Below are positions 3,375-58,665 of a stretch of DNA of 64,000 bases, piece by piece. Position numbers and translations under genes: made by a program. This DNA is from a virus, in the IMG/VR virus record IMGVR_UViG_3300020201_000009, positions 1-64,000 of that record; one strand, written 5' to 3'. How positions within the stretch are numbered: position 1 is the stretch's first letter; every line of letters starts with the position of its first letter. The notes beneath the pieces are model-generated. The model saw only the letters and a program-made list of their open reading frames with translations, was not told the DNA's origin and did no database searches.

Positions 3375-6300
3375 ATGGCTTGGGACGCAGGAAAAAATCG
3401 TATAAAGAAATGGGAAGATACAAATGAAAAGTTATCGCAACTAGAAGGAGAGTTAACTGATCAGGAGGCTATGGAGACTTTCGCCGAATACTTGTTTGCC
3501 AATCCAAGTATTTGTTTGGAATTATTGGCAAATTTAAAAATTTACCCCCTTCAAGAGCTAATGATAAAGGGATGGATGAGAAATGATTATTCGATGGCAA
3601 TTTGGGGCCGAGGCATGAGTAAATGCATAGACATTAATAGCTCAGTATTAACGAACAAGGGAATTATTCCAATAAAAAATGTGGAAGTTGGCGATAATAT
3701 TTATGCCGAAAAGGGCGTTCAAAAAGTATTAAATAAATGGTTTAATCCAGAAGAAGACGGATTTAAAGTTACGACAAAAAAAGGCTATAGTTTTATCGCA
3801 AAGAAGGGTCATAAATTTAAAATTTACGATCCAGAAACATTTGAAACCAAGTTTATAAATATAGAAGATACTCGTTTAGAGAATCTTATTCCAATAAAAG
3901 TCGGTCCTAATTACTGGGGAAATCAAAGTTTAGATTTTGATAGTAAGGTGAAAGAAAAATTTTTAGTTAATATTGAAAACGATTTAGACTTTTATTATTA
4001 TATTGGACGGCTCTTAGGAGACGATTGTACTACTCACAAAATTGGAATTACATCTCCTGATAAAGAAATGATTGATTTTTTAATAGATTATTACAAGAAG
4101 ATAGCACCAGAAAATAATATTGAACAGTATAAAAAAGTTGATAATGAAACATCCGGCGCATGTATTTCTAACCAAAACCTAACATGTGTTTTAGAGTCTC
4201 TTGGCTTTGATTTATCATTACATTCGGTCTATAAAAAAATTCCCTCTAAACTATTATCTGTTTCGGGTGATAAAATTGCTATGATTCTTCGGGGTCTTTT
4301 CGATACCGGCGGTTACGTTTCATTGATGGAGAAGGAGGAAAAGAAATCTATTAGTTGTCTAATCGGGTATAGTTCTTCTTCTAAAGAAATGGCTAAACAG
4401 GTTCATACATTGTTGCTGAATTTCGGTGTTGTCTCTTCATTCGCTTTGCATTCGTCTGGAGAAAAAAATAAACTGGTAAATGGACAATTCTGCGAAACTC
4501 AAGACGATTATAAGGTGATTATTACTGGGAGTAAATATATAGAAAAATTCAATCAAATTATTGGGTTCGGATTAACCAGAAAACGAGAGAGAGTTGAAAA
4601 ATATTTAGCTCTAAAGAATCCAAAGAGTCTTTATTTTGATAATGTTATACCGAATCTCAGGAAAGCTTTGAAGAAAAAATTTACTCACTGTGGATTTAAA
4701 AAAGAAGAGTTTGAGCTACACGATTCAATGAATCTAGAAAAACTTAAGGAGATTTTTCCATTAATCCCAGAAGGTAAAGAAAAAAATAGCCTTAAAGAGC
4801 TAATAGATAGCGATTTTTATATCGATAAAATTGAATCTATAATACCGTGGAAAACTCAAACTTGTGATATAACAGTAGACAAAGAAGAGTGTTATTGGTC
4901 AGATGGAGCTATTCATCATAATAGCTTCACGGCAGCAGTTTTCTGTCTTTTTTGGTCAGTCTTCAACCCCGATAATCGTATCATTCTAATTTCGTTCGTC
5001 TTTCGTGCGACCAGAAGAATTCTTGAACAAATCGAAAAGTTTGTAAACGCAGATGGGGCTCATAATATTAAAAGTTGTTTTCCTAGCGATTTGCAAAAGA
5101 GAAACGATGAATGGAAATGGGCATTGCCAAATGGGGCTTCTATTGTTTGTTTACCTTTGGGCGATGGAACAAAGATTCGTGGTTTCCGTGCAGATACTCT
5201 CATTATCGATGAGTATAATTACATGAATTCTAATGTTATTACAGAAGTAATTCAACCATTCCTCGTCTCCTCAAATAATGTTTCCTCACAAATGGAAATT
5301 GATCGTATCGAAGACAAACTAGTGGCACAGGGGAAAATAAGAAATGACCAGAGAACAACTTTAGATGAAAATATTAAAGTTATCGCCTTAAGTTCGGCTG
5401 GTTTCCAGTTCGAAGACATGTACAAAAAGTATTCTTATTGGGTGTCCAATATTATGGAAGGAGGTATTACAAAGAGAGACAGTGGCGAAGAGGAGGTGAG
5501 GCTTGGTGTTGGTGAAAATATTTCCTATTTTGTTTCAAGACTCAGTTATGAAGCCGCTCCCAAGGGATTGTTAAATGCAAAAGTTATTGAAGAGGCACGA
5601 CAAGGCGCTAGTCAAAGCGTTTTCGATAGAGAATATAGGGCAATTTTTACAGCAGACTCGGACTCTTACTATTCTGCTAAAAAAATGGTAGAATGCACAA
5701 TCCCAAATGGCCAATCGCCATGTATGGAAATAGAGGGCGATAATGGATCGGAATATATTCTTTCAATCGATCCATCTTTCTCTTCGGCAGAGCACTCTGA
5801 CTATTTTGCAATGGTTATTTTAAAAATCGTCAAGAAAGACGGGAAGAAAATTCCCCTTCTTGTGCATTGTTACGCAGTTGCGGGCGGAAGTCTTAAAGAT
5901 CATACTCTTTATTTATATTTTTTACTTAAAAAATTTAATGTAGTTTATGTAGCTATTGACTCTTCTGGTGGAGATAGTAATGAATTTATTAATTCTTCAA
6001 ATAATTCTAAACTATTTAAAGATAGTAAAATAGAATTATTGGACATACAAGCGGATTTTGCTAAACATGATAATTCTGATCTTATAAAAGAAATTAAAAA
6101 AAGTTATAACTTGCAGCAAAAAAGAATTGTACAAAAACAACATTTCGGCGCTGGTAATTTTTTAAGATCCGCAAATGAATATATGCAAGGTTGCTTTGAT
6201 AGAAAGAATTTAATGTTTGCTGGTAAGATTAATAGTAATGCCAACGAACTTTCCAGAATATCGGGTACCAGTATGGATATACTAAAAGATCATAAATCCT

Positions 6301-6578
6301 TTAAAGATATTGATATCGAGGAATTTATCGAAGACCAAGATAATTGGATAGATGTCACAAAACAAGAATGCGCACTTATAGAAATTAGCACAAGCGCACT
6401 TGGAACAATGTCGTTTGATTTACCATTGTCTTTGCGAAGAAGTAAACAGGCGAATAGAGTGCGTAAGGACTTGTACTCAGCGTTGTTACTGGGAAATTGG
6501 GCGTTCAAACTATATATTGAATGTTTGAATGAGCCCGAGGTAAAGACTTTTGCGACTTTTGCTCCGTTTTTGGGATAA
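3375..6578 (+). CDS. terL: Terminase large subunit containing an intein
   Basis: 1067 residues as translated; removing the 433-residue intein leaves 634, normal for the ATPase-nuclease that packages phage DNA. The N-extein ends at K83 and the C-extein starts at S517; joined they form the P-loop G-R-G-M-S-K-S. Walker B is L-I-I-D-E with D612/E613. The RNase H-like nuclease has S-I-D-P near 799, A-I-D-S-S later, and a C-terminal acidic residue in R-K-D-L-Y. It follows the ERCC4 nuclease by 3 bases and precedes the portal region. The last 65 or so bases are duplicated at 6802-6868. Confidence 0.93.
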   Translation: MAWDAGKNRIKKWEDTNEKLSQLEGELTDQEAMETFAEYLFANPSICLELLANLKIYPLQELMIKGWMRNDYSMAIWGRGMSKCIDINSSVLTNKGIIPIKNVEVGDNIYAEKGVQKVLNKWFNPEEDGFKVTTKKGYSFIAKKGHKFKIYDPETFETKFINIEDTRLENLIPIKVGPNYWGNQSLDFDSKVKEKFLVNIENDLDFYYYIGRLLGDDCTTHKIGITSPDKEMIDFLIDYYKKIAPENNIEQYKKVDNETSGACISNQNLTCVLESLGFDLSLHSVYKKIPSKLLSVSGDKIAMILRGLFDTGGYVSLMEKEEKKSISCLIGYSSSSKEMAKQVHTLLLNFGVVSSFALHSSGEKNKLVNGQFCETQDDYKVIITGSKYIEKFNQIIGFGLTRKRERVEKYLALKNPKSLYFDNVIPNLRKALKKKFTHCGFKKEEFELHDSMNLEKLKEIFPLIPEGKEKNSLKELIDSDFYIDKIESIIPWKTQTCDITVDKEECYWSDGAIHHNSFTAAVFCLFWSVFNPDNRIILISFVFRATRRILEQIEKFVNADGAHNIKSCFPSDLQKRNDEWKWALPNGASIVCLPLGDGTKIRGFRADTLIIDEYNYMNSNVITEVIQPFLVSSNNVSSQMEIDRIEDKLVAQGKIRNDQRTTLDENIKVIALSSAGFQFEDMYKKYSYWVSNIMEGGITKRDSGEEEVRLGVGENISYFVSRLSYEAAPKGLLNAKVIEEARQGASQSVFDREYRAIFTADSDSYYSAKKMVECTIPNGQSPCMEIEGDNGSEYILSIDPSFSSAEHSDYFAMVILKIVKKDGKKIPLLVHCYAVAGGSLKDHTLYLYFLLKKFNVVYVAIDSSGGDSNEFINSSNNSKLFKDSKIELLDIQADFAKHDNSDLIKEIKKSYNLQQKRIVQKQHFGAGNFLRSANEYMQGCFDRKNLMFAGKINSNANELSRISGTSMDILKDHKSFKDIDIEEFIEDQDNWIDVTKQECALIEISTSALGTMSFDLPLSLRRSKQANRVRKDLYSALLLGNWAFKLYIECLNEPEVKTFATFAPFLG
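3624..4922 (+). other. Intein with LAGLIDADG homing endonuclease in the terminase P-loop
   Basis: Residues 84-516 of the terminase frame. It begins with Cys (C-I-D-I-N-S-S-V-L-T, block A) and ends A-I-H-H-N before Ser (+1), the standard splice residues. Two LAGLIDADG-type helices are visible: Y-I-G-R-L-L-G-D-D and L-R-G-L-F-D-T-G-G. Block B is less clear, with G-H-K-F in place of the usual T-x-x-H. Insertion between the Lys and Ser of the Walker A loop is a classical intein site because the DNA is conserved and the host protein is inactive until splicing. Confidence 0.92.
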
Positions 6579-49294: not shown

Positions 49295-49323
49295 ATTATA
49301 AGAAAAACTTTGACGAATGTCAA
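49295..49323 (-). promoter_or_regulatory. Canonical sigma-70 promoter TTGACA-N17-TATAAT
   Basis: On the - strand TTGACA (complement of 49318-49323), exactly 17 bases, then TATAAT (complement of 49295-49300). It is a perfect consensus promoter 14 bases before the start of the 88-residue gene and overlaps the stop of the upstream gene. Confidence 0.85.
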
Positions 49324-49751
49324 GTAAGTTTACGTTGCACATTTCTTGACCGATTTTGAGCCCGCTCCGAAAGAGATATCTTAAGTTTTTTTAATTTTTC
49401 TTGAGCCAGTTTTTTCTTCTTAACTGGATTAACAATTCCAGTATCCCTTTCTATTTGATCATCATGTTTTTGTTTAATGGGATCAATACCTTCTTTTTCG
49501 GCTCGCCTAGAGGAAAATTCGGAAGAGCGTTCCCATAGTTCTCCGAAATTTCCCCCGTTTTTGTTGGTAACTTTTACGAAATCCTTCGAGCTATATGGAT
49601 CTGATTTTGTATCTTTTGAGGCTTGTGGTACTGTATAAATTCTTTTCCATATAACTTTGGTTTCATCAATATAAACTTTATCGTCTTTCATATGAAAGAA
49701 GATATCTTTCGTTTCTCCGCTAAGAGGATCTTCGAATAAATAATAAGGCAT
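49320..49751 (-). CDS. FmdB-like small protein without zinc ligands
   Basis: 143 residues. The N-terminus (P-Y-Y-L-F-E-D-P, then D-E-T-K-V-I-W-K-R-I-Y-T-V-P-Q-A-S) follows the layout of phage proteins related to FmdB zinc ribbons, and F-G-E-L-W-E-R-S-S-E-F-S matches their second conserved block. The usual cysteine pairs are absent. The C-terminus is basic. Encoded between the glycosyltransferase and the 88-residue gene. Function unknown; phage relatives are often found in structural or regulatory clusters. Confidence 0.5.
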   Translation of the reverse strand: MPYYLFEDPLSGETKDIFFHMKDDKVYIDETKVIWKRIYTVPQASKDTKSDPYSSKDFVKVTNKNGGNFGELWERSSEFSSRRAEKEGIDPIKQKHDDQIERDTGIVNPVKKKKLAQEKLKKLKISLSERAQNRSRNVQRKLT

Positions 49752-49766
49752 TAATAAATTTTAGGT

Positions 49767-50843
49767 TTAAACACCTCTAATAGCCGAATTATTAGATATA
49801 AGAGTATTGAAAGTATCGGCATAGGTTAAATAGCCAAAAGATCTTTTAGGTCCGGGGGCGGCGAGGGCTTGCTTTAAAACTTCAACAAATTCCTTTTCGT
49901 CCCAATCAAAGAAATTACCCTGATTAAAATCGGCACCGGGATGGAAGAAAATATTATCGTAGGCCGGAAATTTAGCGTTAGGTTTTACGACCCAAGAATT
50001 TTCGTTGTTAAAGTAATCTTTGTAGGCATGAGCATCCAAAGATACGATTTTTTTACCTAAACAAGCAGCTTGATAAACTGGTAAATCTCTACCTTCCCCG
50101 CCCGACATTCCTAAAAATACATCGCAGCTGTTTAGAAAATCATTGTATTCCGCGTTCTTAGGCATCGCTGGCATCGAAGGGAAATTATAAGGTCTGACTC
50201 CATTAAAAGTATGATGGAGAATTTTTGCATTGTCTTCTGGATTGAAGAAAGGATTGTTAACGGCGGCATGGATGGCATATTCCCCATTATTACCAAATTC
50301 TTTTTGAAGAACCCGAAGAATCTTTTGGGTTCTTTTGCGATTCTCAAATTTCCCCCCTAATCCGATAACCTTGACATCTTTTGGATATTTTCTACTGTTG
50401 ACTTCTTTAAAGTTATGAGTGTCAAAACCTAATTCTAAAAATACTACGTTCTTTAAACCATAAGATTCGAATACTTCCTTAGTGAAACTAGAAGTCACCC
50501 AAACCACGCTTTGCTGGGATAAAATATTGACCTCAGTCGGAGTCAGGGTATCGGTTTCATGGAAGGTGATTAGCTCTTGGTTGTTAGAAAACGATTCTAG
50601 GGAACCATTGATATGCCAAAGCTTGATTGTTCGAAAGGCACGAGAGTGATTCTTCATGTGACTCGTAATCTTGCTATTCACCCATTTTTCAAATTCCTGA
50701 TCTGGAACTTGAGCTGCCATTGATACGTTACCAATAGGAATAATTGTACAATCTAAATTTTTCTTATAAGCTTCACGTAGTAAAGCGATTGATGTTTGAC
50801 CCAGACTTAAGTCGTTAATTGGGAAGTGGAAAGTGACTGGCAT
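49767..50843 (-). CDS. GT4-family glycosyltransferase
   Basis: 358 residues, GT-B fold. It has an N-terminal Rossmann part, a G-L-G-G-K-F-E-N-R-K-R-T segment near 163-174 beginning the C-terminal domain, and M-S-G-G-E-G-R-D-L-P-V-Y-Q-A-A near 245-260 that contains the nucleotide-sugar binding acidic pair. It would transfer a sugar from a nucleotide donor to an unknown acceptor. The start overlaps the stop of the sigma-like gene by one base. Confidence 0.8.
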   Translation of the reverse strand: MPVTFHFPINDLSLGQTSIALLREAYKKNLDCTIIPIGNVSMAAQVPDQEFEKWVNSKITSHMKNHSRAFRTIKLWHINGSLESFSNNQELITFHETDTLTPTEVNILSQQSVVWVTSSFTKEVFESYGLKNVVFLELGFDTHNFKEVNSRKYPKDVKVIGLGGKFENRKRTQKILRVLQKEFGNNGEYAIHAAVNNPFFNPEDNAKILHHTFNGVRPYNFPSMPAMPKNAEYNDFLNSCDVFLGMSGGEGRDLPVYQAACLGKKIVSLDAHAYKDYFNNENSWVVKPNAKFPAYDNIFFHPGADFNQGNFFDWDEKEFVEVLKQALAAPGPKRSFGYLTYADTFNTLISNNSAIRGV

Positions 50844-51400
50844 TAAATTTCATTATGAATTTTTTCTTCTATTTTCTTTAGGTTGCGTATGTATATCATT
50901 CTCGCCCCTTGTTTTGTAATATTATAAAGTTTGGCAATTTCTGGCCAAGTTGTTTTTTTGAGACTACAATGTCTTAGTTCAAATATTTCTTGGAACCTTT
51001 TGTCATCTATATTATGAAATTCAGATTGAATGTAATCAATTAATTGTTTATCGTTACAGGTTTCTTTATCCGATAAATTTTCCAATCCAGAATCTTCAAC
51101 TTGTATAATACCTTCGTTATCATGAAGTAGTCTCTGGCATTGCCAACGAATATTTTGTCCAATCCAACTAGAAAATTTCATTTTCCGATCTGGATTGTAG
51201 TTCATTGCATAATTGTAAATATTATACATTTTATGTTCAAGTAACTCGTCTCGTTCAATTTTAGGAACGTAAGTATATTGATTTACGATATTTACATAAA
51301 TACCGGTATGACGATTTACTAATTCTAAAAGAGACGCGGAATCTTGTTTAGATTTAATCTCTTGAATCAATTGATGATCATTAACTTCGGCTGGAAGCAT
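50843..51400 (-). CDS. Second sigma-70-like factor
   Basis: 185 residues. Residues about 40-95 follow region 2 (D-E-L-L-E-H-K-M-Y-N-I-Y-N-Y-A-M-N-Y-N-P-D-R-K, then F-S-S-W-I-G-Q-N-I-R-W-Q-C-Q-R). Residues about 135-180 follow region 4 (F-E-L-R-H, then T-W-P-E-I-A-K-L-Y-N-I-T-K-Q-G-A-R, a helix-turn-helix). It lies in the operon with host-type promoters, so it may be made early and redirect polymerase to the AGTGTAT promoters. Assignment by pattern; compare the factor at 628-1305. Confidence 0.6.
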   Translation of the reverse strand: MLPAEVNDHQLIQEIKSKQDSASLLELVNRHTGIYVNIVNQYTYVPKIERDELLEHKMYNIYNYAMNYNPDRKMKFSSWIGQNIRWQCQRLLHDNEGIIQVEDSGLENLSDKETCNDKQLIDYIQSEFHNIDDKRFQEIFELRHCSLKKTTWPEIAKLYNITKQGARMIYIRNLKKIEEKIHNEI

Positions 51401-52109: not shown

Positions 52110-52115
52110 TTACGC

Positions 52116-52146
52116 TTTATACTATTCAATTGTAAGTATAAGTCAA
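52116..52146 (-). promoter_or_regulatory. Host-type promoter of the - strand early operon
   Basis: TTGACT (complement of 52141-52146), then TATAAA (52116-52121) at 19 bases or AGTATA (52118-52123) at 17. The predicted start falls at or next to the ATG at 52109. Confidence 0.6.
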
Positions 52147-52149
52147 CAT

Positions 52150-53360
52150 TTTTTTTTTGTTAAAAGTGCATAGTAGTCCTATGTGGCGCAGACACAAAGA
52201 CTTATAAAGTTTATAGAACTCATAAACAGTTTAAAACACTTGGGGAAACTTTAAGTAAGATCTTAAAACACCAAATATTAGACGAAAAAGTCATTTTGCG
52301 GCAAGTGAAGAACTTACTACCGATAAACTTTAAACAACTCTTCGGAGCCATTCGTCCAGCCCTGCGGTCTGAACTCATGGAACCTTCGGTTCATTGAAAG
52401 GCAATTTACATTTGCCATTCATTGTACAGTTTCTAAGTTGTACATTTTCCTTTTACTCACCATTTAGAAAACATACAGTTATTAACTGTAAAGTCTAATA
52501 ATGTACAAGTCTAAAACGGTAGAGGAAACTAGAAGAAAAATGCCTTTATAATGAACCGAAGGTTCACAACGATTCTTTACTTTAGTAAAGATGAGTTGTT
52601 TGATTGGAAAACTTTACGGAATCTCGGACTTTACATTAGAATCTTTAGACTTACTAGACTCGCGTTGCTTCTCTAAGAATACTACCGTAAGAGATTTTTA
52701 ACAAACGCACTTTACAGAAAGGAAGATTAAAAGATTCTTTCTTTTTCAATAAGAGCACCGCCCGCAGGGTGGGGCTCGTTCTGCCCCGAAGGGCCATAAC
52801 CCCCCAATGGAGCCCTTTTACATCACTTTGATTGACTCAAAAAGTGCGTATTATCGGTTATTCTAACCTACCCAACGTGTGATTAACTACCGGGCCACAA
52901 TTATAGTCAAGGCATTGTCATGCTCAGGGTGATCCCGCTTTTCATCTATTCAAATTCTTTTAGGTTTCAACCGTTATGTCGTTCAGCATTTCTCATAATC
53001 CGACTCGATAACCTGTTTTGACAGATCGGGACTACAAGGCCAAACACGTATCTAACCCGAATGTGAGGGTGTTTTATCACATTCTGTATGAGAATCTTAC
53101 TAATCCGCCCCGAGTTAATTCTCGGTTTCCACGTCCCAAAGGGCTCCTGAAGGGTCTCGTGCATAGTATTTCTACGTTTAAAGTAACGCATTAAGTTTTC
53201 AACCCCAATGGCCGTCACATCTTGACGGTAGTTTGACTGTCACGCTTAAACTTGTGAAGGACTTTCAAAAGTTATCTGGCCCTCGCGCAGGGCTCTAATT
53301 ATAAAGTATTATGTTAGTTTACGCCAAAAAAGGTTAATTTTATCTCAGGCGCTCTTAACT
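52150..53360 (-). ncRNA. Candidate giant structured non-coding RNA
   Basis: About 1.2 kb without a credible gene but with at least a dozen near-perfect hairpins. Examples: CATAG/CTATG at 52169-52183, GAACC/GGTTC at 52380-52392 and 52553-52565, TACAGTT/AACTGTA at 52474-52490, a 12-bp interrupted stem at 52566-52599, GCCC-TTCG-GGGC at 52783-52794, GGTTA/TAACC at 52856-52868, AATGTGA/TCACATT at 53060-53083, CCGAG/CTCGG at 53110-53125, CCGTCA/TGACGG at 53212-53228 and GCCCT/AGGGC at 53279-53293. The C(UUCG)G orientation and a promoter at 53366-53394 point to the - strand. Size and style recall phage-borne GOLLD and ROOL RNAs, but no homology is claimed. Confidence 0.6.
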
Positions 53361-53365
53361 TTCAC

Positions 53366-53394
53366 TATAATACACATAATTTTTTGAAAGTCAA
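53366..53394 (-). promoter_or_regulatory. Host-type promoter of the structured RNA
   Basis: TTGACT (complement of 53389-53394), then TATTAT at 16 bases (53367-53372) or ATTATA at 17. It points into the hairpin-rich region and predicts a 5' end near 53359. Confidence 0.6.
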
Positions 53395-53507
53395 CACAGT
53401 TTGCGTTAAAACTTTTTCGAAAAACCGAATCCATAAAAAAGTTTGCATCTAAAACATGTTGACTTTTGCCGCGTTTTAAGGGAAAATCCCTTTTAAGAAC
53501 AAATAAA

Positions 53508-56892: not shown

Positions 56893-58240
56893 AGGGCGAG
56901 GCTTGTAATACATAAAGTCCCAATTACTTGGAACTTAACGGTTTATATACGTTTGGCTTGTTGACAGAAGCCTGCCCGTCGAGTCCCGTAACCGCTAGGT
57001 CACTGAACGAAACAGGGAGTTTGGAACGACCGGCTATATTGATCGCCGCATTTACATCTGCGTCCAATACAGTTCCGTCCTTGCAGTAGTATCTACTGCC
57101 TTTTCTTTGACCATCCATCAATCCGGTTCTTGAGTCAATTTGACTCGTAAACCGAGGATTGATTAGCCTAACCGTTTTCCCGTATATGGGTGCCTTGTAT
57201 GTCAAAATTCTTTTGAGTTCCGCAAACGGAACTTGGCCGATCTTATTGTTGTTAGACCGACTCATCTTTTTCTTTTTCGTCTTGGCGTTCTTCAATCCCG
57301 TCAGGTCTTCCAATACCAGCGTATTTCCTTTTGTGTTTCTAATCAGCAGATTAGCTAGGACATGAGACTGATTTCTGTTCTTGTTCGCCTCTTTATGCCG
57401 AATCTTAAACAAGTGGCGTTTTGCCGACTTGGTTCCCTTTGCTTGCAGTTGTCTTTTCAGAAACCTTAACTTTCTTTTGTCCTTATTGAACTTCTTGTCG
57501 ATATAAATTTGTCCTTCGGAAGTAGCGATGGCCCGATTTACTCCGAGATCAATACCGGTCGCCAATTTATTTAATGGTTCGGGCTTGACGTTTACTTCAA
57601 ACGTAAAGGCTATCCAAATCTTGTCGTTCCGAAAGAAAAGCAAAGGGTCGCAGAATTCATACTCGGCCAACAAACCGTCCAATTTCGCGTAACGCTTGAA
57701 GTCTACAGTCACTCTTTTCTCTAACGAAGTCAGCAGTATTTTTCCCTTCTTGTAGGTGTAAATGCGCTTATCCAAGCGCATCGAAAGATTCTTCTTGTTG
57801 ATCGGACCTACAATTCTGTGTTTATTGCTTTTGACAGAGCGATACGAAGACAGACATTCAGCCTGCGCTCTTATCACTATTTGCGATGGAATTCCCGGAT
57901 TTTTGTCGCGAAATTGCCGGTAAAACTTAGCGTGAAGCTCAATCACGGAGTTTTTTCTCTTACTTCCGTCGCCATAGTGTATGACACTGGCCTCGTTAAA
58001 AGCCGACCGTTCGGCCTTTAAAACGGCAAGGATTTTTTCAAAGTCCGCTTGACTTTGAAACAAAACCTCCGTATTGTATGTTAAGTGAGTCACTTCACTG
58101 AAATATACACGCATTCTTCAACTCTTTTATACAAAAATCTTTCAATCTGTGATAAATAACTTATCTTGCTATTCCGCGAATACCGCCAAACCGGCGAGGC
58201 TTCCTCCCGGTCCTAAAGGACCGGGTTTCCGCCCCATCCC
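56877..58240 (-). mobile_element. TnpB-only IS200/IS605 (IS1341-type) element
   Basis: The right end on the - strand carries a GCCC-TTTA-GGGC hairpin (56885-56896) after an AAGTTCCAA/TTGGGACTT stem-loop (56915-56936) that overlaps the tnpB stop, the layout of an omega RNA. The other flank has a second hairpin with the same TTTA loop, CCCGGTCC/GGACCGGG (58205-58228), either the left end or part of another element. No TnpA transposase is encoded, so mobility would need one in trans. Confidence 0.8.
56924..58114 (-). CDS. tnpB: TnpB, RNA-guided DNA endonuclease with degenerate zinc finger
   Basis: 396 residues. RuvC residues are intact: G-I-D-L-G near 188, L-V-L-E-D near 268 and D-A-D-V-N-A-A near 351. 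The zinc finger that usually has two cysteine pairs is reduced to T-S-Q-I-D-S-R-T-G and a single Cys (Y-Y-C-K-D-G), so three of four ligands are missing, a variant also known in other IS1341-type proteins. TnpB uses a guide RNA from its right end to cut DNA and maintain the element. Confidence 0.9.
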   Translation of the reverse strand: MRVYFSEVTHLTYNTEVLFQSQADFEKILAVLKAERSAFNEASVIHYGDGSKRKNSVIELHAKFYRQFRDKNPGIPSQIVIRAQAECLSSYRSVKSNKHRIVGPINKKNLSMRLDKRIYTYKKGKILLTSLEKRVTVDFKRYAKLDGLLAEYEFCDPLLFFRNDKIWIAFTFEVNVKPEPLNKLATGIDLGVNRAIATSEGQIYIDKKFNKDKRKLRFLKRQLQAKGTKSAKRHLFKIRHKEANKNRNQSHVLANLLIRNTKGNTLVLEDLTGLKNAKTKKKKMSRSNNNKIGQVPFAELKRILTYKAPIYGKTVRLINPRFTSQIDSRTGLMDGQRKGSRYYCKDGTVLDADVNAAINIAGRSKLPVSFSDLAVTGLDGQASVNKPNVYKPLSSK

Positions 58241-58245
58241 CTGAG

Positions 58246-58665
58246 ATGAAAATTTTTCTAGTATACATTAAGGATTGGCCGGAAGATACTTATCGTGTCA
58301 TTTCCGTTTATACGTATAAAAAAGACGCCGAAGAACAAGCTAGGCAACTTCAGGCAAGAGTAAAAGAGGTTGAATTAAATCCTCCCCATAGACTCCCAGT
58401 GGGCTACATTCTATGGGAGATTCATGCAGAAAAAGAAGGTGATATTACATATCTAAGACCAATTGACATTGAATATTGTAAAGATCTACCCGAAGTTGGA
58501 GTCCAATATCCAAAATATGGCATTGGAAATGAAGACTATGTTGGTTATGCAATCTACACCAAACTATGCAAGACGGCGGAAGATGCGAAAAGAGAGTGTC
58601 TAATCGACAGAGAAACAGCGATATCTAGGGGAGAATTCCCATACGACGGACAACCGCAAAAATAA
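58246..58665 (+). CDS. Protein of unknown function
   Basis: 139 residues, starting about 18 bases beyond the left hairpin of the IS. Mixed alpha/beta, with D-A-E-E-Q-A-R-Q-L near 30 and Y-V-G-Y-A-I-Y near 100. It lies between sugar-transferase genes and may belong to the same pathway, but no family is recognised. Confidence 0.55.
   Translation: MKIFLVYIKDWPEDTYRVISVYTYKKDAEEQARQLQARVKEVELNPPHRLPVGYILWEIHAEKEGDITYLRPIDIEYCKDLPEVGVQYPKYGIGNEDYVGYAIYTKLCKTAEDAKRECLIDRETAISRGEFPYDGQPQK

What the first reader, a model, noticed from the sequence alone, without database searches (positions are those of the whole stretch)
52150..53360. Giant hairpin-rich non-coding region, probable novel large phage RNA
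About 1.2 kb between two operons lacks any convincing gene yet contains a dozen or more perfect or near-perfect stem-loops of 5-12 bp, including a C(UUCG)G tetraloop on the - strand and two mutually complementary GAACC/GGTTC hairpins (52380-52392, 52553-52565) that could pair at long range. A host-type promoter faces into it. Large ornate RNAs of unknown function (GOLLD, ROOL) are known in phages; this resembles them in size and design, but I cannot show homology.
Basis: partly seen in the sequence, partly recalled or inferred. Interest (0 to 1): 0.92.

Follow-up and report, generated by a model that had tools for sequence, protein, structure and literature searches.

The report
Orphan 1.2-kb structured phage RNA candidate
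A virus of bacteria carries a 1.2-kb stretch that makes no protein but has its own start signal and folds more than chance predicts, so it probably makes a large RNA of an undescribed kind, although no relative was found that could prove it.

Summary
Window 52110-53465 is the longest ORF-poor stretch of a 145,870-bp phage record and lies at a divergent operon boundary. No ORF there has phage-like codon use. Folding beats dinucleotide shuffles (z = -4.5 on the - strand, -4.3 on the +). Without one 186-nt palindrome the - strand keeps z = -3.2 and the + strand -2.0, which points to a - strand RNA. A promoter of the type this phage uses before genes (9/27 against 3.8%, P = 4e-7) starts leftward at about 53360 with no gene behind it. 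End pairing of the predicted 1202-nt RNA is weak evidence (5-10% of shuffles reach it).

The GOLLD/ROOL filing is not supported: nothing credible in Rfam. The only other copy found is identical over the region. BLAST, nhmmer, a domain covariance model, pattern scans and about 80 relatives gave no homolog, so covariation could not be tested.

Verdict: probable orphan large structured phage RNA, function inferred only; a long operon leader is the main rival. By-product: a separate, strongly covarying ~315-nt phage RNA family without an Rfam match.

The parts
52110..53465 (.). ORF-poor stretch at the divergent boundary of two operons
53367..53394 (-). promoter TTGACT-16-TATTAT facing into the region; predicted start near 53360
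   Evidence: start position inferred
52159..53360 (-). predicted non-coding RNA of about 1202 nt (3' end inferred; no terminator found)
53349..53359 (-). 5' side of the end-closing helix (GUUAAGAGCGC), pairs with 52159-52169
   Evidence: mean pair probability 0.91; weak
52159..52169 (-). 3' side of the end-closing helix (GCACUUUUAAC)
   Evidence: weak
53138..53156 (-). 5' side of a bulged 19-pair domain helix, pairs with 52798-52818
   Evidence: mean pair probability 0.97-0.98
52798..52818 (-). 3' side of the bulged 19-pair domain helix
52380..52565 (.). 186-nt palindrome: long hairpin closed by GAACCUUCGGUUCAUU / AAUGAACCGAAGGUUC
52119..52146 (-). separate promoter TTGACT-16-TAGTAT of the left operon (145-aa gene)
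53459..53487 (+). promoter-like TTGACT-17-GAAAAT before the right operon (glycosyltransferase)

Best explanation
The - strand of 53360-52159 is transcribed from its own phage promoter into a non-coding RNA of about 1.2 kb that folds into several domains, possibly closed by pairing of its two ends. Most likely it acts as a free-standing RNA during infection (a scaffold or binder of host or phage components, as suggested for GOLLD and ROOL) rather than as a message. Shown here: no coding signal, excess folding, - strand bias, and a promoter of a type that is enriched before genes of this phage. Inferred: transcription itself, the 3' end, independence from the downstream operon, and any function.
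For: No coding signal. Excess folding, z -4.5 full length. - strand bias once the palindrome is removed, -3.2 against -2.0, and -1.9 against +0.4 in the 3' part. Promoter type enriched before genes, P = 4e-7, and the copy at 53394 has no gene behind it. The left operon has its own promoter at 52146, so the one at 53394 is not needed for it. A kin phage has a 110-nt two-hairpin element with z -5.0 at the syntenic boundary, and kin phages carry other structured RNAs.
Against: No homolog, hence no covariation. No terminator on the - strand, so read-through into the left operon is possible. 52800-53200 alone is near background. End pairing is reached by 5-10% of shuffles. No transcript data.
Confidence: 0.5

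Rival explanations
1. It is a very long structured 5' leader or control region of the left (- strand) operon. The promoter at 53394 drives the 145-aa/sigma-like/SSB-like operon through a folded leader that delays or regulates it.
For: Same strand and orientation as the left operon, and no terminator between them. Divergent boundaries are usual places for control elements; in kin phage G007 a small two-hairpin element sits there.
Against: The left operon has its own promoter at 52146, downstream of the region. A leader of 1.2 kb would be exceptionally long. No riboswitch or leader family in Rfam matches.
Confidence: 0.25
2. It works as DNA: a replication origin, a packaging or recombination site, or a protein-bound control region whose inverted repeats matter in duplex or cruciform form.
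For: The strongest repeat, the 186-nt palindrome, is equally good on both strands. The site is where gene orientation switches.
Against: No DnaA-like boxes in the region and no cumulative GC-skew extremum there. Folding outside the palindrome favours one strand, which a DNA element would not need.
Confidence: 0.15
3. It is decayed or newly inserted sequence without function: the remains of a lost gene plus a small palindromic mobile element.
For: In G007 a 431-aa ORF of 1296 bp lies at the syntenic place and in the same orientation. The palindrome could be a small mobile element.
Against: tblastn of the 431-aa and neighbouring proteins finds nothing meaningful in the region (best E 0.01 for the 133-aa protein, 0.34 for the 431-aa one, on a very small search space). 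Decayed sequence should not show excess folding with a strand bias. The promoter is intact. No second copy of the palindrome's ends in any fetched locus outside this phage.
Confidence: 0.1

Closest known systems
GOLLD RNA
   Same: Phage-borne, non-coding, more than 800 nt, many predicted helices (PMC12286853)
   Different: No covariance-model match; not beside tRNAs; no homologs, so no conserved 3' region can be shown
ROOL RNA
   Same: Phage-borne large ornate RNA of unknown function (PMC12286853)
   Different: No covariance-model match; not beside tRNAs; about twice as long as I recall ROOL to be (own knowledge)
OLE RNA
   Same: Large structured non-coding RNA
   Different: No covariance-model match; OLE is found mostly in Gram-positive extremophiles and anaerobes (PMC12054373)
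HEARO / IsrB omega RNA
   Same: Structured RNA on mobile DNA; a TnpB gene lies 3.5 kb away in the window
   Different: No covariance-model match; no nuclease gene in or beside the region
X315, the ~315-nt RNA of kin phages found here (no Rfam match)
   Same: Intergenic phage RNA with a TTGACA-type promoter upstream in the members read, in phages that share the sigma/glycosyltransferase/143-aa module
   Different: Its covariance models find no credible match in the window region (unfiltered best hit 10.7 bits over 63 nt); sequence and size differ

Membership tests
GOLLD | Match to the Rfam covariance model | tested here: not met
   no match even at E<=10
GOLLD | Often near tRNA islands in phages or prophages | tested here: not met
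   no tRNA in the window; the phage's four tRNAs lie at 112-117 kb
GOLLD | Length often above 800 nt | tested here: inconclusive
   predicted 1202 nt from promoter and end helix only; 3' end not known
GOLLD | Covarying helices and a conserved 3' region | tested here: inconclusive
   no diverged homolog found
GOLLD | RNA-only 14-mer cage | not testable with these tools
   needs in vitro assembly and cryo-EM
ROOL | Match to the Rfam covariance model | tested here: not met
ROOL | Often near tRNA islands | tested here: not met
OLE | Match to the Rfam covariance model | tested here: not met
HEARO / IsrB omega RNA | Match to the Rfam covariance model | tested here: not met
HEARO / IsrB omega RNA | Nuclease ORF in or beside the RNA | tested here: not met
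   no ORF above 83 aa in the region; TnpB at 56924-58114 is 3.5 kb away
tRNA / tmRNA | ARAGORN or Rfam match | tested here: not met
X315 RNA of kin phages | Match to its covariance models R2/R3 | tested here: not met

The most novel reading that the evidence does not exclude
A new class of phage RNA, about 1.2 kb long and at least as large as GOLLD, with closed ends and several domains, made from its own promoter and unrelated in sequence to all Rfam families, with a structural or host-takeover role.
Probability: 0.35. Interest if true: 0.75.

Novelty: new variant of a known kind. Interest (0 to 1): 0.5.

Why it matters
Very few bacterial or phage RNAs exceed 800 nt. GOLLD and ROOL turned out to form RNA-only cages larger than a ribosome (PMC12286853), yet what they do is unknown. 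An unrelated RNA of the same size in another phage group would suggest that phages invent such RNAs repeatedly, and would give another system in which to look for the function. In the same phage group a smaller RNA family is firmly supported by covariation, so these genomes look rich in undescribed structured RNAs.

Tried and rejected
Homology of the region. Rfam: no credible match. Phage and plasmid blastn, even at E<=10: scattered hits of 20-46 nt only. Flanking proteins in viral contigs: one near-identical contig. The 96-aa/sigma/glycosyltransferase/143-aa/SSB module: kin with parts of the operon but without the region. blastn in 50 kin records: no credible match (best E 3.8e-4 over 38 nt, opposite strand, isolated). 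Single-sequence covariance model of the 3' domain over 80 loci: only the near-identical contig.

Hidden or decayed gene: rejected on codon score and on tblastn of the syntenic 431-aa protein. tRNA or tmRNA in the region: none. Origin of replication: no DnaA boxes, no skew extremum. Diverged X315 copy: no.

End pairing as strong proof: dropped, since 5-10% of shuffles reach it. A 19-pair helix as an unbroken run: corrected, it has a bulge; the longest unbroken run is 16-17 bp. Literature: no paper found that describes this RNA (open-licence papers only).

Full report
WHAT IS THERE. The window is bases 1-64000 of a 145,870-bp virus record. Genes left of 52109 run on the - strand: 145 aa, a 96-aa membrane-type protein, a 185-aa sigma-like protein, a 358-aa glycosyltransferase, 143 aa, an SSB-like 234-aa protein, a 1014-aa glycosyltransferase. 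Genes right of 53465 run on the + strand, starting with glycosyltransferases (the membrane and SSB-like labels are inference from sequence, without a family hit). Between them lies the longest ORF-poor stretch of the record, 52110-53465, at an 85-aa cut-off. Its ORFs are at most 83 aa and have codon scores of -0.24 to +0.02, like spurious ORFs (median -0.025) and unlike long genes (+0.09 to +0.28). One small gene that is conserved in a kin phage (96 aa) also scores low, -0.036, so the score alone does not exclude a very small unusual gene.

IS THE STRUCTURE MORE THAN CHANCE? Folding 53360-52159 gives -337 kcal/mol on the - strand and -312 on the +, z = -4.5 and -4.3 against 120 dinucleotide shuffles. 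Both strands share a 186-nt palindrome (52380-52565), whose closing 16-17 bp helix has a better stacking energy than the best contiguous helix of any of 160 shuffles. With that palindrome cut out, the - strand keeps z = -3.2 (0/60 shuffles) and the + strand falls to -2.0. The 3' part 52159-52379 gives -1.9 (-) against +0.4 (+). Coding stretches of the same genome average 0.09. The signal is therefore real and leans to the - strand, but it is uneven: 52800-53200 taken alone is near background.

TRANSCRIPTION SIGNAL. A TTGACT-16-TATTAT promoter at 53394-53367 (-) points into the region. Over the whole record, 27 sites match TTGAC(T/A)-16/17-xAxxxT with at least 4 of 6 matches to TATAAT; 9 of them lie within 50 nt of the start of an ORF of 100 aa or more, against 3.8% for random positions (P = 4e-7). 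The phage therefore appears to use this promoter type, and the copy at 53394 has no gene behind it. The left and right operons have their own copies at 52146 (-) and 53459 (+). The predicted start, about 53360, coincides with the 5' side of a helix that joins the two ends of the RNA (53359-53349 with 52169-52159, mean pair probability 0.91). I give this little weight, since 5-10% of shuffles show comparable end pairing. No terminator was found on the - strand, so the 3' end is a guess.

SEARCH FOR RELATIVES. None of the 4227 Rfam families reaches its gathering score, and the permissive search up to E = 10 lists only miRNA and snoRNA models. The only other copy, in IMGVR_UViG_3300020596_000035, has no difference in the region, so it says nothing about covariation. 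Kin were reached through terminase, the 143-aa protein and the glycosyltransferase (80 loci). Kin phage G007 has the same operon order, but at this site a 431-aa and a 153-aa ORF and a 110-nt two-hairpin element with z = -5.0. The window region is not a recognisable relic of the 431-aa gene. blastn in 50 whole kin records, nhmmer, a covariance model of the 3' domain and three pattern scans found nothing further. It is an orphan within what could be searched; metagenome contigs could not be scanned.

HOW IT MOST LIKELY WORKS. Shown: non-coding, folds beyond chance with a - strand bias, has a phage-type promoter. Inferred: a free-standing - strand RNA of about 1.2 kb acts during infection as a folded scaffold or binder, by analogy with GOLLD and ROOL, which form RNA-only cages (PMC12286853). 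The main rival is a long structured leader of the left operon; DNA-level function and decayed sequence are less likely.

MEMBERSHIP. It is not filed under GOLLD, ROOL, OLE or HEARO, because their defining model matches were tested and not met. It could still work like GOLLD or ROOL; that needs experiments.

BY-PRODUCT. Long gaps in kin phages held tmRNAs and a conserved ~315-nt element, here called X315. In 17 aligned members 54 of 78 pairs change on both sides, 93% of cells pair, and 0/500 shuffles reach this; sliding the partners destroys the signal. That alignment was fitted to the model, but a MAFFT alignment of 8 members already gave 30 of 79 pairs with compensatory changes. One member searched permissively has no credible Rfam match. 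It is not homologous to the window region. Its single-sequence fold z is only -1.8, a reminder that z-scores are a weak guide in either direction.

Noticed in passing
L078:1159-1473 (+); also L069, L057, L079, L085, L093, L066, L042, L281-L283, L065, L104, L100, L072, L081, L098: X315: a ~290-325-nt structured RNA family of kin phages, in several of them next to a phage tmRNA. 54 of 78 pairs covary in 17 members (0/500 shuffles); no credible Rfam match for the member searched permissively. Function unknown; deserves its own study.
   Followed up: partly
L091:5775-6206 (+): 432-nt non-coding stretch with an upstream TTGACA-type promoter and a terminator-like hairpin at its end; fold z = -3.7 on the + strand; no Rfam match except a tmRNA elsewhere in the locus.
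   Followed up: partly
L090:5780-6429: 650-nt non-coding stretch with fold z = -5.2 and -5.6 on the two strands, no Rfam match.
   Followed up: partly
L035:10476-10585 (+): 110-nt two-hairpin element (z = -5.0; second hairpin followed by TTTTG, terminator-like) at the syntenic divergent boundary of kin phage G007.
   Followed up: partly
window 49320-51400 (-): The sigma-like / glycosyltransferase / 143-aa gene module is kept in order in most of 80 viral contigs that share little else with this phage.
   Followed up: partly
window 3375-6578 (+): The large terminase ORF (1067 aa) appears to hold an intein: kin terminases of about 630 aa lack the middle part.
   Followed up: no
window 56924-58255: TnpB-like gene (Cas12f1-like TNB domain). 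14 of the 16 differences between the two near-identical contigs fall in 57286-58249, and the alignment ends at 58255.
   Followed up: no
L014:8268-12655 (genome 112268-116655): The phage's four tRNA genes (Arg, Glu, Gln, Lys), three of them inside other long ORF-poor stretches; unlike several kin, no tmRNA was found.
   Followed up: no
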